Assembly (NCBI RefSeq): GCF_913063425.1
Contig: NZ_CAJXYK010000032.1
Span: forward strand, 1-64,000
Length of the DNA stretch: 64,000 nucleotides
Direction of reading: 5' to 3'
Origin: an uncultured Thiohalocapsa sp.
GTDB taxonomy: Bacteria > Pseudomonadota > Gammaproteobacteria > Chromatiales > Chromatiaceae
The notes under the pieces were generated by a model. That model was not told where the DNA came from. It saw nothing but the letters and a program-made list of their open reading frames with translations, and did no database searches. Positions 31,685 through 42,865 of the stretch are shown piece by piece. How positions within the stretch are numbered: position 1 is the first letter of the stretch; each line of letters opens with the position of its first letter. The position numbers and the translations under genes were made by a program.

Positions 31685-31821
31685 CCCTCGCCCTCCGGTC
31701 AGCGCACGCCGCGTACACCGAAAGTGCATCCACTCAGGCCGCCATCACGTCGGCGTTGATATACTGTCAGCGGCCGGCCCCGCCGCCGGCGGCGACAGCA
31801 AGCCCGGAATCGGTACCCCTC

Positions 31822-32529
31822 ATGGCGTTGGCAGAAGAAGACATCCAGTTCATCAAGGACCACCTGGCGGTGTGGCTGGCGGAGCAGAGCCTCGGTAAGC
31901 CGCCGGCGGTGTACGAGATCGAGCTGCGCGAGCGCATGGTGCGGGTGGAAGAAGAGCTGCGCCACCAGCGCGAGCTGATGCGCGAGGGCTTTGCCCAGAT
32001 CGACAAGCGCCTTGAGCAGGTGGATAAGCGCTTCGAGCAGGTCGACAAACGCTTCGAGCAGGTGGACCAGCGTTTCGAAGAGACTCAGGCGTTCATGGAG
32101 AAGCGCTTCGCGCAGGTGGACAAGCGTTTCGAAGAGACTCAGGCGTTCATGGAGAAGCGCTTCGCGCAGGTGGACAAGCGCTTCGAGGACATGCAGACGG
32201 CCATGGGCAAGCGCTTCGAGGACGCGCAGGCCGCCATGGACAAGCGCTTCGCGCAGGTCGATAAGCGTTTCGAAGACATCCAGGCGTCCGCGGACAAGCG
32301 CTTCGAGAGCATGCAGACATCCATGGATAAACGCTTTGAGGAGATGCAGACCTCCATGGATAAGCGCTTCTGGGACATGCAGTCATACATGGACAAACGC
32401 TTCGACGCCGGCCAGCAGGATATCCGCGAGCTGCAGCAGCGCATGGACCGCTTCCTGGTCTGGTCCTTCGGCACCACCGTCGCCGTCGGCGGACTGGTGG
32501 TCACCTTGATCAAGTTCTGGAATCCCTGA
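31822..32529 (+). CDS. Coiled-coil repeat protein with C-terminal membrane anchor
   Basis: A 235-residue protein. Residues 55-200 are about twenty heptad-like units with a DKRFEQV / MDKRFED consensus, forming a long coiled coil. The DNA shows the same tandem repeats, including two near-identical 54-bp blocks at about 32077-32184. A single membrane helix at the C-terminus (FLVWSFGTTVAVGGLVVTLIKFW) anchors it. The N-terminal 45 residues (EEDIQFIKDHLAVWLAEQ) form a separate conserved-looking helix. The ATG at 31822 is the first good start. Function unknown; a membrane-tethered spacer or scaffold is plausible. Copy number of the repeats may vary between strains. Confidence 0.75.
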   Translation: MALAEEDIQFIKDHLAVWLAEQSLGKPPAVYEIELRERMVRVEEELRHQRELMREGFAQIDKRLEQVDKRFEQVDKRFEQVDQRFEETQAFMEKRFAQVDKRFEETQAFMEKRFAQVDKRFEDMQTAMGKRFEDAQAAMDKRFAQVDKRFEDIQASADKRFESMQTSMDKRFEEMQTSMDKRFWDMQSYMDKRFDAGQQDIRELQQRMDRFLVWSFGTTVAVGGLVVTLIKFWNP

Positions 32530-32604: not shown

Positions 32605-34563
<1,959 letters not shown>

Positions 34564-34685: not shown

Positions 34686-34701
34686 TGGCACGCCAATTGC
34701 T
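34686..34701 (+). promoter_or_regulatory. Sigma54 -24/-12 promoter of the transporter operon
   Basis: TGGCACGCCAATTGCT matches the consensus TGGCAC-N5-TTGC exactly, with GG at 34687-34688 and GC at 34699-34700 separated by 10 bases. Transcription would start near 34712, about 200 bases upstream of the binding-protein gene. Confidence 0.85.
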
Positions 34702-34915: not shown

Positions 34916-36415
34916 ATGTCGTACCGAAGCCTGGGCAATCCCTTCGATGCCAACACCGACCTCCAGCATGGGCCGGCCTGCAACTGCCCCATCTGCGTCT
35001 TCAAGCGCGAAGAGGCGGCCTCCTCCTACGAATGCACCGAGTCCGAGATGACGGAGCGCCTGGAGCGCGCCGTCTTCGACGACGCCGCCACCGACACCGG
35101 CGCTGCGTCTCCCGCGCTCGCCGCCGCCGGTGCGGCCAAGCGCGAAACCTTCGAGACCTCCGACGACATCATGGACCGCGCCATCGAGAGCGCCATCGTC
35201 CGCGGCGTCTTCGGCCACAACGACATGAGCCGCCGGCAGTTCCTGGGCCTCGTCGGCGGCGGCACGCTGGCCTCCATCCTCGGCACCATGCTGCCCATGG
35301 ACAAGATCAAGGCCGCCGCCAAGGAGGAGATGGGCGCGCTCGAGAAGGCCAAGCTCAAGGTCGGCTTCGTGCCCATCACCTGCGCCACGCCCATCATCAT
35401 GGCGCACCCCCTCGGCTTCTACGAGAAGTACGGGCTGGACGTGGACGTGATCAAGACCGCCGGCTGGGCCGTCGCCCGCGACAAGTCCCTGTCCGGTGAG
35501 TACGACGCCTCGCACATGCTCACGCCCATGCCGCTCGCCATGACCATGGGGGCAGGCTCCACCGCGGTGCCCTACCGCATGCCGGCGGTGGAGAACATCA
35601 ACGGCCAGGCGATCGTGCTGCACAACGACCACAAGGACAAGCGCGACCCGAAGGACTGGAAGGGCTTCAAGTTCGGCGTGCCCTTCGACTACAGCATGCA
35701 CAACTTCCTGCTGCGCTATTACGTCGCCGAGCACGGCCTGGACCCAGACCAGGACATCCAGATCCGCGTGGTGCCGCCACCGGAGATGGTCGCCAACCTG
35801 CGCGCCGGCAATCTGGACGGCTTCCTGTCGCCTGACCCGTTCAACCAGCGCGCGGTCTGGGAGAAGGTGGGCTTCATCCACATCCTGACCAAGGACATCT
35901 GGCCCGGTCATCCCTGCTGCGCGTTCGCATGCTCCGACGAGTTCGCCGAGACCATGCCGAACACCTACTCGGCGCTGCTCAAGTCCATCATCGATGCGAC
36001 GCACTACTCGCAGAAGGCGGAGAACCGCAAAGAGATCTCAGAGGCCATCGCGCCGAAGAACTATCTCAACCAGCCGGTGCCTGTCATCGAGCAGGTGCTG
36101 ACGGGCCGCTTCGCCGACGGGCTCGGCAATGTGCAGGACGTGCCGGACCGCATCGACTTCGACCCCTTCCCGTGGCATTCCATGGCCGTGTGGATCCTGA
36201 CGCAGATGAAGCGCTGGGGCTATGTCGAAGGCGACATCGACTACAAGGGTATCGCCGAGCAGGTCTATCTGGCCTCCGACGCTGCGAAGTATATGCAGGA
36301 GCTCGGCTACGAGCCGCCGGACAAGACCTACGAGAATTACACCATCATGGGCAAGGAGTTCGATTGGACCAAGCCCGAGGAGTACATCGCGAGCTTCGAC
36401 ATCAAGCGGACCTGA
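34916..36415 (+). CDS. NrtA/CmpA-family ABC transporter substrate-binding protein
   Basis: A 499-residue binding protein of the nitrate/bicarbonate/cyanate (NrtA/CmpA) type. Residues 1-100 form an N-terminal module with a Cys cluster (HGPACNCPICVFKREE, Cys 22, 24, 27) and then FETSDDIMDRAIESAIVRGVF. A twin-arginine motif MSRRQFLGLVGGG follows (Arg 106-107). The binding domain starts at KLKVGFVPITCATPIIMAH. The ATG at 34916 follows AAGGGGA. Related proteins carry similar Cys-rich pre-Tat segments, so the long N-terminus is probably real. It heads a sigma54-controlled operon. The ligand is an oxyanion or pseudohalide by family, not determined here. Confidence 0.88.
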   Translation: MSYRSLGNPFDANTDLQHGPACNCPICVFKREEAASSYECTESEMTERLERAVFDDAATDTGAASPALAAAGAAKRETFETSDDIMDRAIESAIVRGVFGHNDMSRRQFLGLVGGGTLASILGTMLPMDKIKAAAKEEMGALEKAKLKVGFVPITCATPIIMAHPLGFYEKYGLDVDVIKTAGWAVARDKSLSGEYDASHMLTPMPLAMTMGAGSTAVPYRMPAVENINGQAIVLHNDHKDKRDPKDWKGFKFGVPFDYSMHNFLLRYYVAEHGLDPDQDIQIRVVPPPEMVANLRAGNLDGFLSPDPFNQRAVWEKVGFIHILTKDIWPGHPCCAFACSDEFAETMPNTYSALLKSIIDATHYSQKAENRKEISEAIAPKNYLNQPVPVIEQVLTGRFADGLGNVQDVPDRIDFDPFPWHSMAVWILTQMKRWGYVEGDIDYKGIAEQVYLASDAAKYMQELGYEPPDKTYENYTIMGKEFDWTKPEEYIASFDIKRT

Positions 36416-36716
36416 TCCGCGCGGACGTCATCTTCCGATAAGGCTCTGCAAGCAGGTATGCAGGGCCAGCCCCGACCTTGGCCATGGACGGCCAGGCGTC
36501 GGTACTCCCCCGTTGATTCATCCCGTCGCGATTGCAAATGAAATCGGCAAAGCGATCGGTATTAACCACAGTTTTGCGCACGACCAGCTGACACCATACT
36601 GAAAGGCATGTGAGCGACCCGCACCTCTGCTGCTGCACGTGACGCTCCGCGCCGCAGCCGCGTTTGCAGCTGCGACCCACGAACCGCCTACGCCGATCCC
36701 AAACGAGCACAGCACC
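36416..36716. other. Gap between binding protein and permease genes
   Basis: 301 bp inside the operon with no gene seen on either strand. It is AT-richer than its surroundings around 36520-36610. No clear terminator or sigma54 box is present; a secondary promoter is possible. The long spacing suggests that the binding protein is expressed at a higher level than the permease. Confidence 0.35.
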
Positions 36717-37547
36717 ATGCTCCAATCCATCAACGCCCGCGCAGTACTGGTTTCTCTCGTGCTGCTGGTTGTCACCCTCGGCCTGTGGCAGCTCAGTCAC
36801 ACATCTTCCGAGGCCGACACCGAAATGACCGAGTACGAGCGCCTCATGGGCGGCGCGGAGCCGCAGGCCAAGGTACCGCCGCCGTCGGAGATCATCGGTC
36901 TGGCGGCCAAAGAGCTGTCCAACCCCTTCTACGATGCAGGCCCCAACGACAAGGGCATCGGCATCCAGCTCGGCTACTCCATCTACCGGGTGCTGACGGG
37001 CTTCGGGCTCGCGGCGTTGGTGGCCATTCCGCTCGGCTTTCTCATCGGCATGTCGCCGTTGATGTACAAGGCGCTGAATCCCTTCATCCAGATCCTGAAG
37101 CCCATCTCGCCGCTGGCCTGGATGCCGCTCGCGCTCTTCATCATCAAGGACTCGGAGGCGTCGTCCATCTTCGTGATCTTCATCTGCTCCATCTGGCCGA
37201 TGCTGATCAACACCGCCTTCGGCGTCGCCGGCGTGCGCAAGGACTGGGTGAACGTGGCCCGCACTCACGAATTGACGCCCATGAACACGGCCTTCCAGGT
37301 GATTCTGCCCGCGGCGGCGCCGACCATTCTCACCGGCATGCGCATCAGCATCGGCATCGCCTGGCTGGTGATCGTCGCGGCCGAAATGCTCGTCGGCGGC
37401 ACCGGCATCGGCTACTACGTCTGGAACGAGTGGAACAACCTGGACCTCACCAGCGTCATCTTCTCGATTCTGATGATCGGCCTCGTGGGCATGCTCCTGG
37501 ACATGGCGCTGGCCACCGCCACCCGCTTTGTCCAATACCAGGAGTGA
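36717..37547 (+). CDS. NitT/TauT-family ABC transporter permease
   Basis: A 276-residue permease of the NrtB/TauC/SsuC type with six membrane helices. The coupling loop reads ARTHELTPMNTAFQVILPAAAPTILTGMR. An insertion near residues 25-60 (SSEADTEMTEYERLMGGAEP) lies between helices 1 and 2 on the outer side, as in NrtB. The ATG at 36717 gives a sensible membrane N-terminus. It lies directly upstream of the ATPase gene (5 bp gap). Confidence 0.88.
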   Translation: MLQSINARAVLVSLVLLVVTLGLWQLSHTSSEADTEMTEYERLMGGAEPQAKVPPPSEIIGLAAKELSNPFYDAGPNDKGIGIQLGYSIYRVLTGFGLAALVAIPLGFLIGMSPLMYKALNPFIQILKPISPLAWMPLALFIIKDSEASSIFVIFICSIWPMLINTAFGVAGVRKDWVNVARTHELTPMNTAFQVILPAAAPTILTGMRISIGIAWLVIVAAEMLVGGTGIGYYVWNEWNNLDLTSVIFSILMIGLVGMLLDMALATATRFVQYQE

Positions 37548-37552
37548 CGACC

Positions 37553-38521
37553 ATGGCAGAGCAGCATTTTCTCGAAGTCCGGCACCTCGGCAAGCGCTTC
37601 GACACCGATCACGGCGAGCTCACCGTCTTCGATGACGTGAGCTTCGGCCTCGACAAGGGCGAGTTCGTCTGCATCATCGGCCATTCCGGCTGCGGCAAGT
37701 CCACCATTCTCAATGTCCTCGCCGGACTCGACTCGCCGAGCGGCGGCGAGGTGTACATGGCGGGCAAAGAGGTCCGCGGCCCGTCGCTGGAGCGCGGCGT
37801 CGTCTTCCAGAACTACTCGCTGCTGCCCTGGCGCTCGGCGCTGAGCAACGTGGAGTTCGGGGTGCGGGCGCGCTTCCCGGGCTGGGGCAAGGCCAAGGTG
37901 CGCGAGCACAGCCTGCGATACCTGCACATGGTGGGCCTCAAGGACGGCGCCGAGCACCGCAAGCCCGCCGCGCTGTCCGGCGGCATGCGCCAGCGCGTGT
38001 CCATCGCCCGCGCCTTCGCCACCCAGCCGCAGCTGCTGCTGCTGGACGAGCCCTTCGGTGCCCTGGATGCCTTGACCCGCGGCACCATTCAGGACGAGCT
38101 CCTGAGGATCTGCGCCGAGACCCACCAGACGGTGTTCATGATCACGCACGATGTGGACGAGGCGATTCTGCTCGCCGACCGCATCCTGCTCATGACCAAC
38201 GGCCCATTCGCCCGCGTCGCCGAATCCGTCAAGGTCAGTATCGAGCGCCCCCGGGACCGCACCACCATCGTGCACGATCCAGGCTACTACCCCATCCGCA
38301 CGCACTTGGTGGACTTTCTTGTCTCCCGCTCCCGCGAGCTGTCCGAGCGCGACGACGCCGTCCGCGACGCCGGTCATGCCCGCGAGGTGCGCGCCGAGGC
38401 CATGGCGCCGGTGGAGGTGGACCCGGCCGCCGATGCGCGTGCCGAGGCGGCCGGCCTTGTCCGGGCGCAAGGCCCCGACCCACACGCGCCGCCACCGCTG
38501 AAGGCCGTCAACGGCAACTGA
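37553..38521 (+). CDS. NitT/TauT-family ABC transporter ATP-binding protein
   Basis: A 322-residue ABC ATPase with Walker A GHSGCGKST, signature LSGGMRQRVSIARAF, Walker B LLLLDEPFGALD and switch MITHDVDEAILLADR, characteristic of NrtD/TauB/SsuB. It ends in an Ala/Pro/Glu-rich tail after residue 255, longer than in relatives, which carries no recognisable regulatory domain. It works with the upstream permease and binding protein. Confidence 0.9.
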   Translation: MAEQHFLEVRHLGKRFDTDHGELTVFDDVSFGLDKGEFVCIIGHSGCGKSTILNVLAGLDSPSGGEVYMAGKEVRGPSLERGVVFQNYSLLPWRSALSNVEFGVRARFPGWGKAKVREHSLRYLHMVGLKDGAEHRKPAALSGGMRQRVSIARAFATQPQLLLLDEPFGALDALTRGTIQDELLRICAETHQTVFMITHDVDEAILLADRILLMTNGPFARVAESVKVSIERPRDRTTIVHDPGYYPIRTHLVDFLVSRSRELSERDDAVRDAGHAREVRAEAMAPVEVDPAADARAEAAGLVRAQGPDPHAPPPLKAVNGN

Positions 38522-38577
38522 GGCCGCGCCCTGACGACAGAGCCCGACAGATCAACGAGCACACCACTGGACCCGCC

Positions 38578-40002
<1,425 letters not shown>

Positions 40003-40022
40003 CCGCCCCACTGCCCACCGTG

Positions 40023-41186
40023 ATGCACCCACGCTGGCAGCGGCAGCTGCCGGAGGCGGTCACCGCGCTGCGCTGGCGAAGCGCCGCCGAGCCGGACGGG
40101 CACAGCGCTGGGGCAGAAGACCTGCTCGCCGCAGGCGCCGACGGCTGGCTGCGCAGCCACGCTGGAGGCGACGGTACCGAGCAGCTCGCCTGGCAGGCCC
40201 ATACCGGCGGCATCACCGCCCTCTGCCTGCGTCCAACCCCGAAGCCTGCCCCAAACGAGGCCGGCGACAGCCTCCCCGCCGTGCTCGCCAGCGCCGGCGA
40301 GGACGGTCGGGTGCTGCTGTGGGACACCCGCGGCGGGCTGGTGGCGACCCTCGCCGAGGAGTCGAGCTGGGTGGAGCACCTCGCCTGGACGGCGGACGGC
40401 AGCCTGCTCGCCGCCGCCGCGGGACGCAGCATCCACCTGTGGCGCGGCGAGGAGTCCCTGGGTGTGTGGTACGACGCCAACCGCTCCGTACTGGCGCTGG
40501 CCTGGGCACCGGACGGCAAGCGCCTTGCCACCGCCGCCAACAAAGGTCTGCACCTGTGGCAGGTGGGTGGCGATGCACCGGTGCAGCTCCTCCAGTTTCC
40601 GGGTGCGCCCGTGGTGCTCGGCTGGCGACCGGACGGCAAGGCACTGGCAGTGGGCACCCAGGACGGCTTTCTTCAGGTCTGGCGCCAGGCCGGTGCACGC
40701 GGTCAAGGCGCGAAGGGCGCCGGCCGCAGGGGCGGCTCGTCGCAGCTGACCATGCGCGGCTATCCCGCCAAGGTCGCCTGCCTGGACTGGCACCCGACGC
40801 GCTCCCGCGTCGCCACCGCCGGGGGCCAGGACGTGGTGCTCTGGGACATCCCCGCCGCCGGCGAGGGCAAGCCGACCCCGCTGCGCCTGCACCGCACCGC
40901 CATCACGGCACTGGCTTACGCACCGCACGGCACCCTGCTCGCCTCCGCCGACCGCGACGGCCGTGTCTGCATCTGGTCCGACGCCGGCGCGCCGCTCCAG
41001 TCTCTCGGCCTGGACGCCGAGGTGGCCTGCGCCGCCTGGAACGCCGACGGCTCCGCCGTCGCCTTCGGCGGCACCGACGGCCGTATCACGGTGATGGACA
41101 TCGAGACACAAACAGGCCGTGGTCCGACCGCGGCGAAACACGCCAAAGCTCCGCAACGACCCGACCCCGAGGTGACTCCACGATGA
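40023..41186 (+). CDS. WD40 repeat protein
   Basis: A 387-residue protein made of about seven WD40 blades: recurring GH/D-type strands such as ALAWAPDGKRLATAANKGLHLWQ and ALAYAPHGTLLASADRDGRVCIWS. No signal peptide is visible, so it is cytoplasmic. GTG codons at 39990 and 40020 are alternative starts; the former overlaps the CobW stop. Its own stop overlaps the HupE start (ATGA). As a beta propeller it probably serves as a protein-interaction platform for its operon partners, for example the CobW GTPase. Confidence 0.87.
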   Translation: MHPRWQRQLPEAVTALRWRSAAEPDGHSAGAEDLLAAGADGWLRSHAGGDGTEQLAWQAHTGGITALCLRPTPKPAPNEAGDSLPAVLASAGEDGRVLLWDTRGGLVATLAEESSWVEHLAWTADGSLLAAAAGRSIHLWRGEESLGVWYDANRSVLALAWAPDGKRLATAANKGLHLWQVGGDAPVQLLQFPGAPVVLGWRPDGKALAVGTQDGFLQVWRQAGARGQGAKGAGRRGGSSQLTMRGYPAKVACLDWHPTRSRVATAGGQDVVLWDIPAAGEGKPTPLRLHRTAITALAYAPHGTLLASADRDGRVCIWSDAGAPLQSLGLDAEVACAAWNADGSAVAFGGTDGRITVMDIETQTGRGPTAAKHAKAPQRPDPEVTPR

Positions 41187-41836
41187 CCCGACCCACCGAC
41201 TCCGCACCCGCCAACCTGCTCGTCACCCGCACTGGCACCGCTGCCGCGGGACTGCTCGCCACCATGCCGGCGCTGGCCCACCATCCCATGGGCGGCATGA
41301 CGCCCGCGACCATGACCCAGGGCCTGCTCTCCGGCCTGGGCCATCCCGTCATCGGCATCGACCACTTCGCCTTCCTGGTGGTCGCCGCCCTGCTCGCCTT
41401 CACCGTCACCGGCGCCGCCCGCTGGCTGCTGCCGGCGGCCTTCATCGGCGGCACCGTCGCCGGCACCCTGATCCACGTGCAGGCGCTGGACCTCCCCGCC
41501 GCCGAGCTGCTGGTGGCCGCGAGCGTGCTCGCCGGCGGCGCGCTGGTGGTCTCCGGGCGCAAGCTCGGCGCCGGCGCCCTGGCGCTGCTGCTGGCGGGCG
41601 CCGGCGTCTTCCACGGCTATGCCTACGGCGAGTCCATCGTCGGCGCCGATGCACCGGTGCTCGGCAGCTACCTCGCCGGCTTCGCGCTGATCCAGTACGC
41701 CGTCATCGCGGGCCTGCTGCTGGGCCTGAGCCGGCTCGCCGCCCGCTCCGAGGGCACGGCCGGCACGCTGATCCGCACCGGCGGCATCGGCGCCCTGGCC
41801 GTGGGCGGACTCTTCCTGGTGGCCGGCCTTGTCTGA
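41183..41836 (+). CDS. HupE/UreJ family metal permease
   Basis: A 217-residue membrane protein with about six helices. The family motif HPVIGIDH lies in the second helix region (SGLGHPVIGIDHFAFLVVAALLAF), and a second His/Tyr patch (GAGVFHGYAYGESI) is also typical. HupE/UreJ proteins are secondary permeases for Ni or Co linked to hydrogenase or urease; here no such enzyme is adjacent. Four-base overlap with the WD40 gene supports an operon. Metal identity is not determined. Confidence 0.87.
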   Translation: MTRPTDSAPANLLVTRTGTAAAGLLATMPALAHHPMGGMTPATMTQGLLSGLGHPVIGIDHFAFLVVAALLAFTVTGAARWLLPAAFIGGTVAGTLIHVQALDLPAAELLVAASVLAGGALVVSGRKLGAGALALLLAGAGVFHGYAYGESIVGADAPVLGSYLAGFALIQYAVIAGLLLGLSRLAARSEGTAGTLIRTGGIGALAVGGLFLVAGLV

Positions 41837-42007
41837 GCCCGCGCCGGAACCCACCCGCCAGGAGCCCTGACCACGGATGGTCCCAGCCGGCACCAGCCGG
41901 CAATCTTGATTCAGAACGACGTCGCTGACTGCGGCGCACTCCTGTGCGCCGCCCGGGGTTTCTTTGCCCAAGGAAACCCCACCGAGACCCCCAACGAGAG
42001 CAGTCCC

Positions 42008-42865
42008 ATGCACGAGAACACCCTGATTTCCCCCGAGCAGCTCCACGGCATGATGACCTCCCTGCCGACGGTCATCATCGACACCCGCGCCCCGGAGGCC
42101 TACGCCGCGGGCCACATTCCGGGCGCCGTGAACATCCACGACATCTTCACCTACCTGGCCACGTCGGACCCCGACGGCATGGCCGCACTCAAGGGCAAGT
42201 TCGCCGACGCCTTCGGCGCCGCCGGCCTCTCCGGCGACGAGGTGGCCGTGCTCTACGAAGACACCATGAACTCCGGCTACGGCCAGTCCTGTCGCGGCTA
42301 CTTCCTGCTCAAGTACCTGGGCTACCCCAAGGCCGTGGTCCTGCACGGCGGCTACCAGGGCTGGGTGCACGAGGGCTACGAGACCAGCACCGCGACCGTC
42401 TCCCCGGAGCCCAAGACCTTCCCGGTGGACGAGGCCGCGGCCGACATCATGCTGGACAAGGATGCCATGCTGAAGGCGCTGGAAGACCCGTCCATCATCA
42501 AGCTCGATGTCCGCGACGTGGACGAGTGGGTGGGCCTGAGCTCCAGCCCCTACGGCGTCGATTTCTGCCCGCGCAAGGGCCGGCTCCCCGGCGCCAAGTG
42601 GCTGGAGTGGTACCGCGTCATGAAGCCCGGCGACGTGCCCGTGTTCAAGACCAAGGAAGAGCTCGCCGCCGAGTTCCAGAGCGTCGGCATCAAGGCCAGC
42701 TCCAAGGTCTACCTCTACTGCTTCAAGGGCGCCCGCGCCTCCAACACCTACGTCGCGCTCAAGGAAGCCGGGGTCGAGGACGTCGGCATCTACTTCGGCT
42801 CCTGGAACGAATGGTCGCGTGACCCGTCGCTGCCCATCGACGAGAGCCGGCCGAGCCTCGGCTGA
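42008..42865 (+). CDS. Rhodanese-family sulfurtransferase, two domains
   Basis: A 285-residue tandem rhodanese. The first domain begins IIDTRAPEAYAAGHIPGAVN, the second KLDVRDVDEWVGL and carries the active-site Cys in the loop YCFKGARASN. The first domain also has a Cys (GQSCRGYF) near the matching position. Rhodaneses move a sulfane sulfur to cyanide or thiol acceptors. It lies 171 bp downstream of hupE, so it may be part of the operon or have its own promoter. Start ATG 42008 is preferred over longer readings. Confidence 0.86.
   Translation: MHENTLISPEQLHGMMTSLPTVIIDTRAPEAYAAGHIPGAVNIHDIFTYLATSDPDGMAALKGKFADAFGAAGLSGDEVAVLYEDTMNSGYGQSCRGYFLLKYLGYPKAVVLHGGYQGWVHEGYETSTATVSPEPKTFPVDEAAADIMLDKDAMLKALEDPSIIKLDVRDVDEWVGLSSSPYGVDFCPRKGRLPGAKWLEWYRVMKPGDVPVFKTKEELAAEFQSVGIKASSKVYLYCFKGARASNTYVALKEAGVEDVGIYFGSWNEWSRDPSLPIDESRPSLG

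What the first reader, a model, noticed from the sequence alone, without database searches (positions are those of the whole stretch)
34916..42865. Anion transporter plus metal-handling operon without a known enzyme
A NitT/TauT transporter, a CobW GTPase, a WD40 propeller, a HupE/UreJ permease and a rhodanese lie in line behind one sigma54 promoter. The mix suggests import of a pseudohalide, nitrogen or sulfur compound (for example cyanate, thiocyanate or a nitrile) together with Co or Ni delivery to an enzyme encoded elsewhere. I know no described system with this full set.
Basis: inference. Interest (0 to 1): 0.72.

Follow-up and report, generated by a model that had tools for sequence, protein, structure and literature searches.

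The report
Cyanate operon carrying a metal-handling module
These genes look like the known bacterial cyanate-uptake operon, with its usual enzyme encoded elsewhere in the genome and a metal-delivery module built in, which raises the question of why living on cyanate would need a metal.

Summary
Regulator, sigma54 promoter and transporter match the described cyanate operon cynFABDS: homologues of the binding protein are followed by cyanase (CynS) in 20 of 23 other places. Here cynS is not in the operon; the genome's one cyanase is on another contig. The unusual part is CobW-WD40-HupE behind cynD. It is inherited, not an accident of this genome: 16 genomes, 14 of the window's family, carry cyn-linked CobW-WD40 (one is seen only from cynD on). 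All 16 encode cyanase, 10 inside this operon. These CobWs form one clade. Further downstream lies HupE in 9 genomes, a CbiM-type permease in 6, neither in 1. Nine of the 16 also encode full-length NHase-alpha (one tested is thiocyanate hydrolase), but the window's genome does not. CobW is absent from all 20 cyanase-bearing loci outside this lineage. Reading: CynF/sigma54-controlled cyanate import plus metal importer and GTPase metallochaperone. The cyanate part is well supported; metal and target are inferred. New variant of a known kind.

The parts
32605..34563 (-). cynF-like sigma54-dependent activator (PAS, AAA+, Fis-type HTH), divergent
   Evidence: a homologue (44-63% identity) lies in 17 of the 20 SBP loci that have CynS
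34686..34700 (+). sigma54 -24/-12 promoter TGGCACGCCAATTGC
   Evidence: only perfect match in 64 kb; of 14 other operons with upstream DNA, best site has 0-1 mismatch in 9, 2 in 5
34916..36415 (+). cynA, substrate-binding protein; Cys-rich N-terminal extension (CNCPIC) ahead of a twin-arginine motif
36717..37547 (+). cynB, permease
37553..38521 (+). cynD, ATPase
38578..40002 (+). CobW/COG0523 GTPase with P-loop, CICC and NKxD motifs
40023..41186 (+). WD40 beta-propeller partner of CobW (start ATG 40023 or GTG 40020)
   Evidence: downstream of CobW in 70 of 80 named loci
41183..41836 (+). HupE/UreJ-type metal permease (HPxxGxDH motif)
   Evidence: a CbiM-like protein stands in its place in 6 of 16 genomes
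42008..42865 (+). two-domain rhodanese, CFKGAR loop; membership of the same transcript not shown
   Evidence: same position in 4 of 16 genomes

Best explanation
A cyanate-uptake operon of the cynFABDS type. Inferred steps: CynF, with sigma54, switches on cynABD when cyanate is present and ammonium is scarce. CynABD imports cyanate. The cyanase encoded on contig C2 converts cyanate plus bicarbonate to ammonia and CO2. The operon has captured a CobW-WD40 metallochaperone pair and a divalent-metal permease (HupE; CbiM-like in a sister genus), which import a transition metal and load it into a metalloenzyme used during growth on cyanate or thiocyanate. Likely targets: cobalt thiocyanate hydrolase in relatives that have it; in this genome perhaps a zinc carbonic anhydrase (bicarbonate supply to cyanase). 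The rhodanese probably moves sulfane sulfur (cyanide to thiocyanate) in the same setting. Shown: gene content, promoter sequence, conserved linkage to cyanase, single clade of cyn-linked CobW. Not shown: transcription, substrate, metal, target enzyme.
For: SBP homologues at E<=1e-110 in a sample of 398 genomes of the phylum: 24 places, 23 not the window's; 20 of 23 have CynS downstream on the same strand. Two CynB and two CynD from operons with CynS carry the same 'nitrate' model names, so those names do not separate cyanate from nitrate. The cynFABDS layout, divergent CynF and sigma54 promoter are described with mutants in PMC6627978 (abstract and passages). Own cyanase. 16 genomes with cyn-linked CobW-WD40, cyanase in 16 of 16, in-operon in 10. 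One clade: 100/97 of 62 rows, 100/96 of 69 rows. Two CbiM-like proteins from the HupE position pass the Pfam CbiM cut-off. A HupE lies beside the thiocyanate hydrolase genes in G811, a CbiM-like gene upstream of them in G779 and G781. Full-length NHase-alpha in 18 of 210 order genomes and in 9 of the 14 with the operon, 1.2 expected.
Against: CobW is absent from all 20 SBP loci with CynS outside this lineage, so cyanate use does not need it in general. The window's own genome has no NHase-alpha match, and 9 of the 18 order genomes with full-length NHase-alpha lack the operon. The co-occurrence counts are not corrected for kinship: six of the nine are one genus. Cyanase in the CobW genomes shows no Cys/His site of its own: one Cys is invariant in the 18 CobW-group rows but also present in about half of the 21 others. 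Metal clues disagree: CobW-WD40 points to zinc, HupE/CbiM to cobalt or nickel. Four of 16 genomes (G699, G779, G783, G184) have no beta carbonic anhydrase match (other classes not tested). For the 2-mismatch promoter sites 12-37 of 200 shuffles do as well, and only 8 of the 20 other cyn loci have a site with 0-1 mismatch within 400 bases.
Confidence: 0.75

Rival explanations
1. The operon is a cyanate operon into which a zinc-homeostasis pair was inserted by chance; CobW-WD40-HupE serves general metal supply and has no tie to cyanate.
For: Most CobW-WD40 pairs are not near cyn genes: of the 80 best named loci WD40 is downstream in 70, ZnuA/ZnuB/Zur present in 28 (53 if ZnuC-like ATPases count), cynA in 3. 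In Prochlorococcus L070/L076 CobW-WD40 lies beside cynABDS, yet that CobW nests among zinc-linked ones, which shows such neighbourhoods can arise without a specialised CobW. The window's genome has five other CobW-domain matches.
Against: The linkage is kept in 16 genomes of three families with one CobW clade, in a set gene order whose permease position is filled by two unrelated permease families; G815 has both a zinc-linked and a cyn-linked copy; no ZnuA, ZnuB or Zur match lies in any of the 16 cyn loci.
Confidence: 0.3
2. The transporter here carries thiocyanate or nitrate rather than cyanate.
For: cynS is outside the operon in this genome; NCBIfam calls the permease and ATPase 'nitrate'; closest solved structures are nitrate and bicarbonate proteins; relatives have thiocyanate hydrolase.
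Against: Nine operons with SBPs 73-77% identical contain cynS; CynB/CynD from cynS operons get the same 'nitrate' names; read by eye, a separate nitrate-type ABC locus lies with nitrate and nitrite reductase genes on C21; scn loci have their own, different ABC set, related to the C2 transporter.
Confidence: 0.15
3. The module delivers metal to a metal-dependent form of cyanase itself.
For: In 10 of 16 genomes cynS lies inside the same operon.
Against: No Cys/His column found only in the CobW group among 18 against 21 CynS rows; cyanase is known as metal-free (recalled).
Confidence: 0.07

Closest known systems
cynFABDS of Pseudomonas pseudoalcaligenes CECT5344 (PMC6627978)
   Same: Divergent sigma54 activator CynF, sigma54 promoter before cynA, ABC genes in the order A-B-D
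   Different: Here cynS is not in the operon; CobW, WD40, HupE and rhodanese follow cynD
COG0523 subfamily 5 clusters with WD40 and znuABC (PMC2770081, passage)
   Same: CobW next to a WD40 gene
   Different: Placed in a cyanate operon, own clade, no ZnuA, ZnuB or Zur match in the locus; membership of subfamily 5 was judged by the WD40 neighbour, not by that paper's tree
scnABC thiocyanate hydrolase cluster with cyanase and a lone cobalt-transporter subunit in Thiobacillus thioparus (PMC5328954, passages)
   Same: NitT/TauT transporter, cyanase, lone cobalt permease subunit
   Different: No NHase-alpha match in the window's genome; CobW-WD40 added
E. coli cynTSX (recalled; carbonic anhydrase as cyn product seen in the reference list of PMC6627978)
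   Same: Cyanate use with a zinc enzyme (carbonic anhydrase CynT) in the operon
   Different: LysR control, no ABC transporter, no metallochaperone (recalled)

Membership tests
cynFABDS cyanate operon | Divergent sigma54 activator upstream of cynA | tested here: met
cynFABDS cyanate operon | sigma54 promoter before cynA | tested here: met
   (sequence match only)
cynFABDS cyanate operon | cynABD transporter homologous to those beside cyanase | tested here: met
cynFABDS cyanate operon | cynS in the same operon | tested here: not met
   cyanase on contig C2 instead; in-operon in 10 of 16 kin. The window is therefore called a cynFABD-type operon, not complete cynFABDS
cynFABDS cyanate operon | Induction by cyanate, repression by ammonium | not testable with these tools
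   needs expression data
COG0523 subfamily 5 (CobW with WD40, zinc) | GTPase motifs and CxCC motif | tested here: met
   GFLGxGKTT, CICC, ETTG, NKxD columns (motif names recalled)
COG0523 subfamily 5 (CobW with WD40, zinc) | Adjacent WD40 gene | tested here: met
COG0523 subfamily 5 (CobW with WD40, zinc) | Zinc regulon neighbours (Znu/Zur) | tested here: not met
   no ZnuA, ZnuB or Zur match in the 16 cyn loci
HupE/UreJ permease | Family profile and HPxxGxDH motif | tested here: met
HupE/UreJ permease | Nickel or cobalt transport | not testable with these tools
   needs uptake assay
Thiocyanate hydrolase system | Thiocyanate hydrolase (NHase-alpha family gamma subunit) in the genome | tested here: not met
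   no NHase-alpha match in G000

The most novel reading that the evidence does not exclude
In this lineage of purple sulfur bacteria, growth on cyanate and thiocyanate depends on a dedicated, cyanate-induced cobalt or zinc import and insertion module (HupE or CbiM plus CobW-WD40), which means a metal-dependent step in cyanate catabolism that the textbook CynABDS pathway does not contain.
Probability: 0.35. Interest if true: 0.6.

Novelty: new variant of a known kind. Interest (0 to 1): 0.42.

Why it matters
It turns an 'unknown' operon into a cyanate operon and gives a COG0523 subgroup, a family whose clients are mostly unknown, a concrete physiological setting. Two permease families that swap in one position make the metal question testable.

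Tried and rejected
Thiocyanate dehydrogenase was considered and set aside: passages of PMC6504805 and PMC5328954 describe TcDH loci with Cus or Cop copper genes, a sigma54 regulator and, in Thioalkalivibrio, four ABC subunits; CobW and WD40 occur in neither text, HupE was looked for only in the second and does not occur. No TcDH search of the genome was run. Nitrate transport was set aside because the 'nitrate' model names also fit CynB/CynD. Metal-dependent cyanase was tested and found no support. Carbonic anhydrase as universal target: beta-class Pro_CA in 12 of 16 genomes only, several of the matches weak. The Prochlorococcus neighbourhood of CobW-WD40 and cynABDS (2 loci) looked like a second recruitment, but its CobW nests among zinc-linked ones.

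Literature searches for the set: CobW+WD40+HupE+rhodanese 0 papers; COG0523+WD40 3 papers; cyanase+CobW 1 paper; six terms, at least three held, 6 papers; cynF/cyanase/sigma54, two held, 9 papers; ZNG1+WD40+bacteria 0; cyanase/HupE/CbiM/metallochaperone, two held, 32 papers, 20 listed; purple sulfur bacteria+cyanase+cyanate 1 paper. No listed title or abstract start names the module in a cyanate operon. Most papers were seen as listings only; I looked inside four (PMC2770081, PMC6504805, PMC5328954, PMC6627978), passages or abstract each. The library holds open-licence papers only.

Rows dropped before the trees: the genome scan kept the best 80 of at least 578 relatives. Of those 80, L034 (same contig as G815's L176) and 14 of 18 Prochlorococcus rows were left out by choice, and 16 failed my open-frame filter, as did L188 and L189. 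One search added L188 and L189 and dropped seven long-branch rows; one search put back seven of the 16 (among them L035, the highest-ranked named row outside the window's kin), nine being split or cut. The 16 cyn rows were one set each time (labels G782 'other' because its contig starts inside cynD). The 'zinc' label counts ZnuC-like ATPases, which are unspecific.
Full report
Observation. The window (contig C32 of a 5.9 Mb, 117-contig genome) holds the described genes. A relative of the same genus, G815, has a contig of the same length (74403) with the same CobW position as a record titled uncultured Thiohalocapsa sp., so the window comes from Thiohalocapsa or close kin. The regulator upstream has PAS, sigma54-interaction and Fis-type HTH domains. 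The -24/-12 sequence at 34686 is the only perfect match in 64 kb, and 0 of 200 simple base shuffles of the 431-base upstream region match as well. Of the 15 other genomes with the operon, 14 have the upstream region; the best site has 0 or 1 mismatch in 9 and 2 mismatches in 5, and for the latter 12-37 of 200 shuffles do as well. Among the 20 other cyn loci, 8 have a site with 0-1 mismatch within 400 bases.

What the transporter is. With the binding protein as query, 21 of 398 sampled genomes of the phylum matched at E<=1e-110, 24 places, one of them the window. I fetched the surroundings of all 23 others. CynS lies downstream on the same strand in 20 of 23; the exceptions are two places in G357 and a second, reversed copy in G282. 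A homologue of the window's sigma54 activator, 44-63% identical, lies in 17 of those 20 loci; none of the 20 has a CobW match. This is the cynFABDS arrangement of P. pseudoalcaligenes, where cynABDS is one transcript, CynF is essential, and a putative sigma54 promoter precedes cynA (PMC6627978; abstract, outline and passages seen). The permease and ATPase pass the cut-offs of NCBIfam models named nitrate transporter, but so do two CynB and two CynD proteins from operons with CynS.

The enzyme. The window's genome has one cyanase match, on contig C2, divergent from a second NitT/TauT-type ABC set. The same pairing is seen in G807, G815 and G847.

The metal module elsewhere. Of 210 genomes of the order, 16 have this CobW at E<=1e-100, 17 places. 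By neighbourhood, 14 places, including the window, are in cyn operons and 3 are next to ZnuABC (G704, G815 second copy, G845). With G247 and G184 of other families this makes 16 genomes with cyn-linked CobW-WD40; for G782 the contig starts inside cynD, so cynA and cynB are not seen. WD40 follows CobW in 16 of 16. Downstream of WD40, after cynS where that comes next, lies HupE in 9 and a CbiM-like protein in 6 (two were tested and pass the Pfam CbiM cut-off); neither was found in G247. All 16 encode cyanase: in the operon in 10 (G184, G699, G779-G784, G840, G847), adjacent and convergent in G811, elsewhere in 5 (G000, G807, G815, G842, G247). The rhodanese follows HupE in 4 of 16 (window, G807, G815, G847).

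Origin of the CobW. The 16 cyn-linked CobWs are one side of a branch with support 100/97 among 62 rows and 100/96 among 69 rows; zinc-linked copies from the same family (G704, G845, G815's second copy) lie outside. In the 80 best loci from named genomes (of at least 578), WD40 lies downstream of CobW in 70, ZnuA, ZnuB or Zur in 28 (53 with ZnuC-like ATPases), cynA in 3 (one is G815 itself, two are Prochlorococcus), HupE in 1 (G815); many loci are cut by contig ends. Haas et al. 2009 (PMC2770081, passage) report that prokaryotic subfamily 5 members cluster with WD40 genes and znuABC.

Which metal, which enzyme. HupE and CbiM are nickel/cobalt permease families (recalled; Pfam calls CbiM cobalt uptake). 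Nine of the 16 genomes have full-length NHase-alpha; the one tested, from G779, is thiocyanate hydrolase gamma by TIGR03887, 394.7 bits against a cut-off of 291.45. In the order, 32 of 210 genomes have some NHase-alpha match, 18 of them at E<1e-60; 9 of the 14 genomes with the operon are among these 18, 1.2 expected; by genus 3 of 4, 0.33 expected. Kinship is not corrected for: six of the nine are one genus, and five more genomes of that genus have the enzyme family without the operon. In G811 a HupE gene lies within 2 kb of the NHase-alpha gene, on the contig that also bears the cyn operon; in G779 and G781 a CbiM-like gene, 72% identical to the cyn-operon one of G779, lies 4-6 kb upstream of the scn genes. 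PMC5328954 (passages) describes cyanase and a lone cobalt transporter subunit upstream of scnABC in Thiobacillus. So in relatives the permease plausibly brings cobalt for thiocyanate hydrolase (a cobalt enzyme, recalled). The window's genome has no NHase-alpha match, so there the target must be another; it has one strong beta carbonic anhydrase match, while four of the 16 genomes have none. Cyanase shows no metal-site signature confined to the CobW group.

Conclusion. Ordinary core, unusual addition. The cyanate reading is strong; the metal step is an inference with two competing metals.

Noticed in passing
window 34916-35240; L024, L025, L070, L076, L139-L158, L175-L187: In the rows printed, CynA precursors have a long N-terminal region with CxCxxC or Cys-x-Cys-Gly motifs ahead of the signal region, with or without CobW in the operon.
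   Followed up: partly
L025, L070, L076, L148, L156, L158, L185, L212, L216: A DUF1348 (NTF2-like) gene recurs near cyanase genes in several lineages.
   Followed up: partly
L030 6498-10411 (G000:C2): Own cyanase is divergent from a second NitT/TauT ABC set, kept with cyanase in G807, G815 and G847; related ABC genes lie in the thiocyanate hydrolase loci fetched.
   Followed up: partly
L143, L144, L145, L150, L152, L154: A rhodanese 61-64% identical to the window's lies near cynABDS, apparently in its own operon with OsmC-like and acyl-CoA-dehydrogenase-like genes (named by eye).
   Followed up: partly
window 31756-32529; L032 6450-7001: A protein of repeated DKRFEQV-type heptads, with a similar copy elsewhere in the genome.
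   Followed up: no
G660, G835, G837, G815:C55: Short clustered NHase-alpha partial matches, probably NHLP leader peptides of RiPP precursors (interpretation recalled).
   Followed up: no
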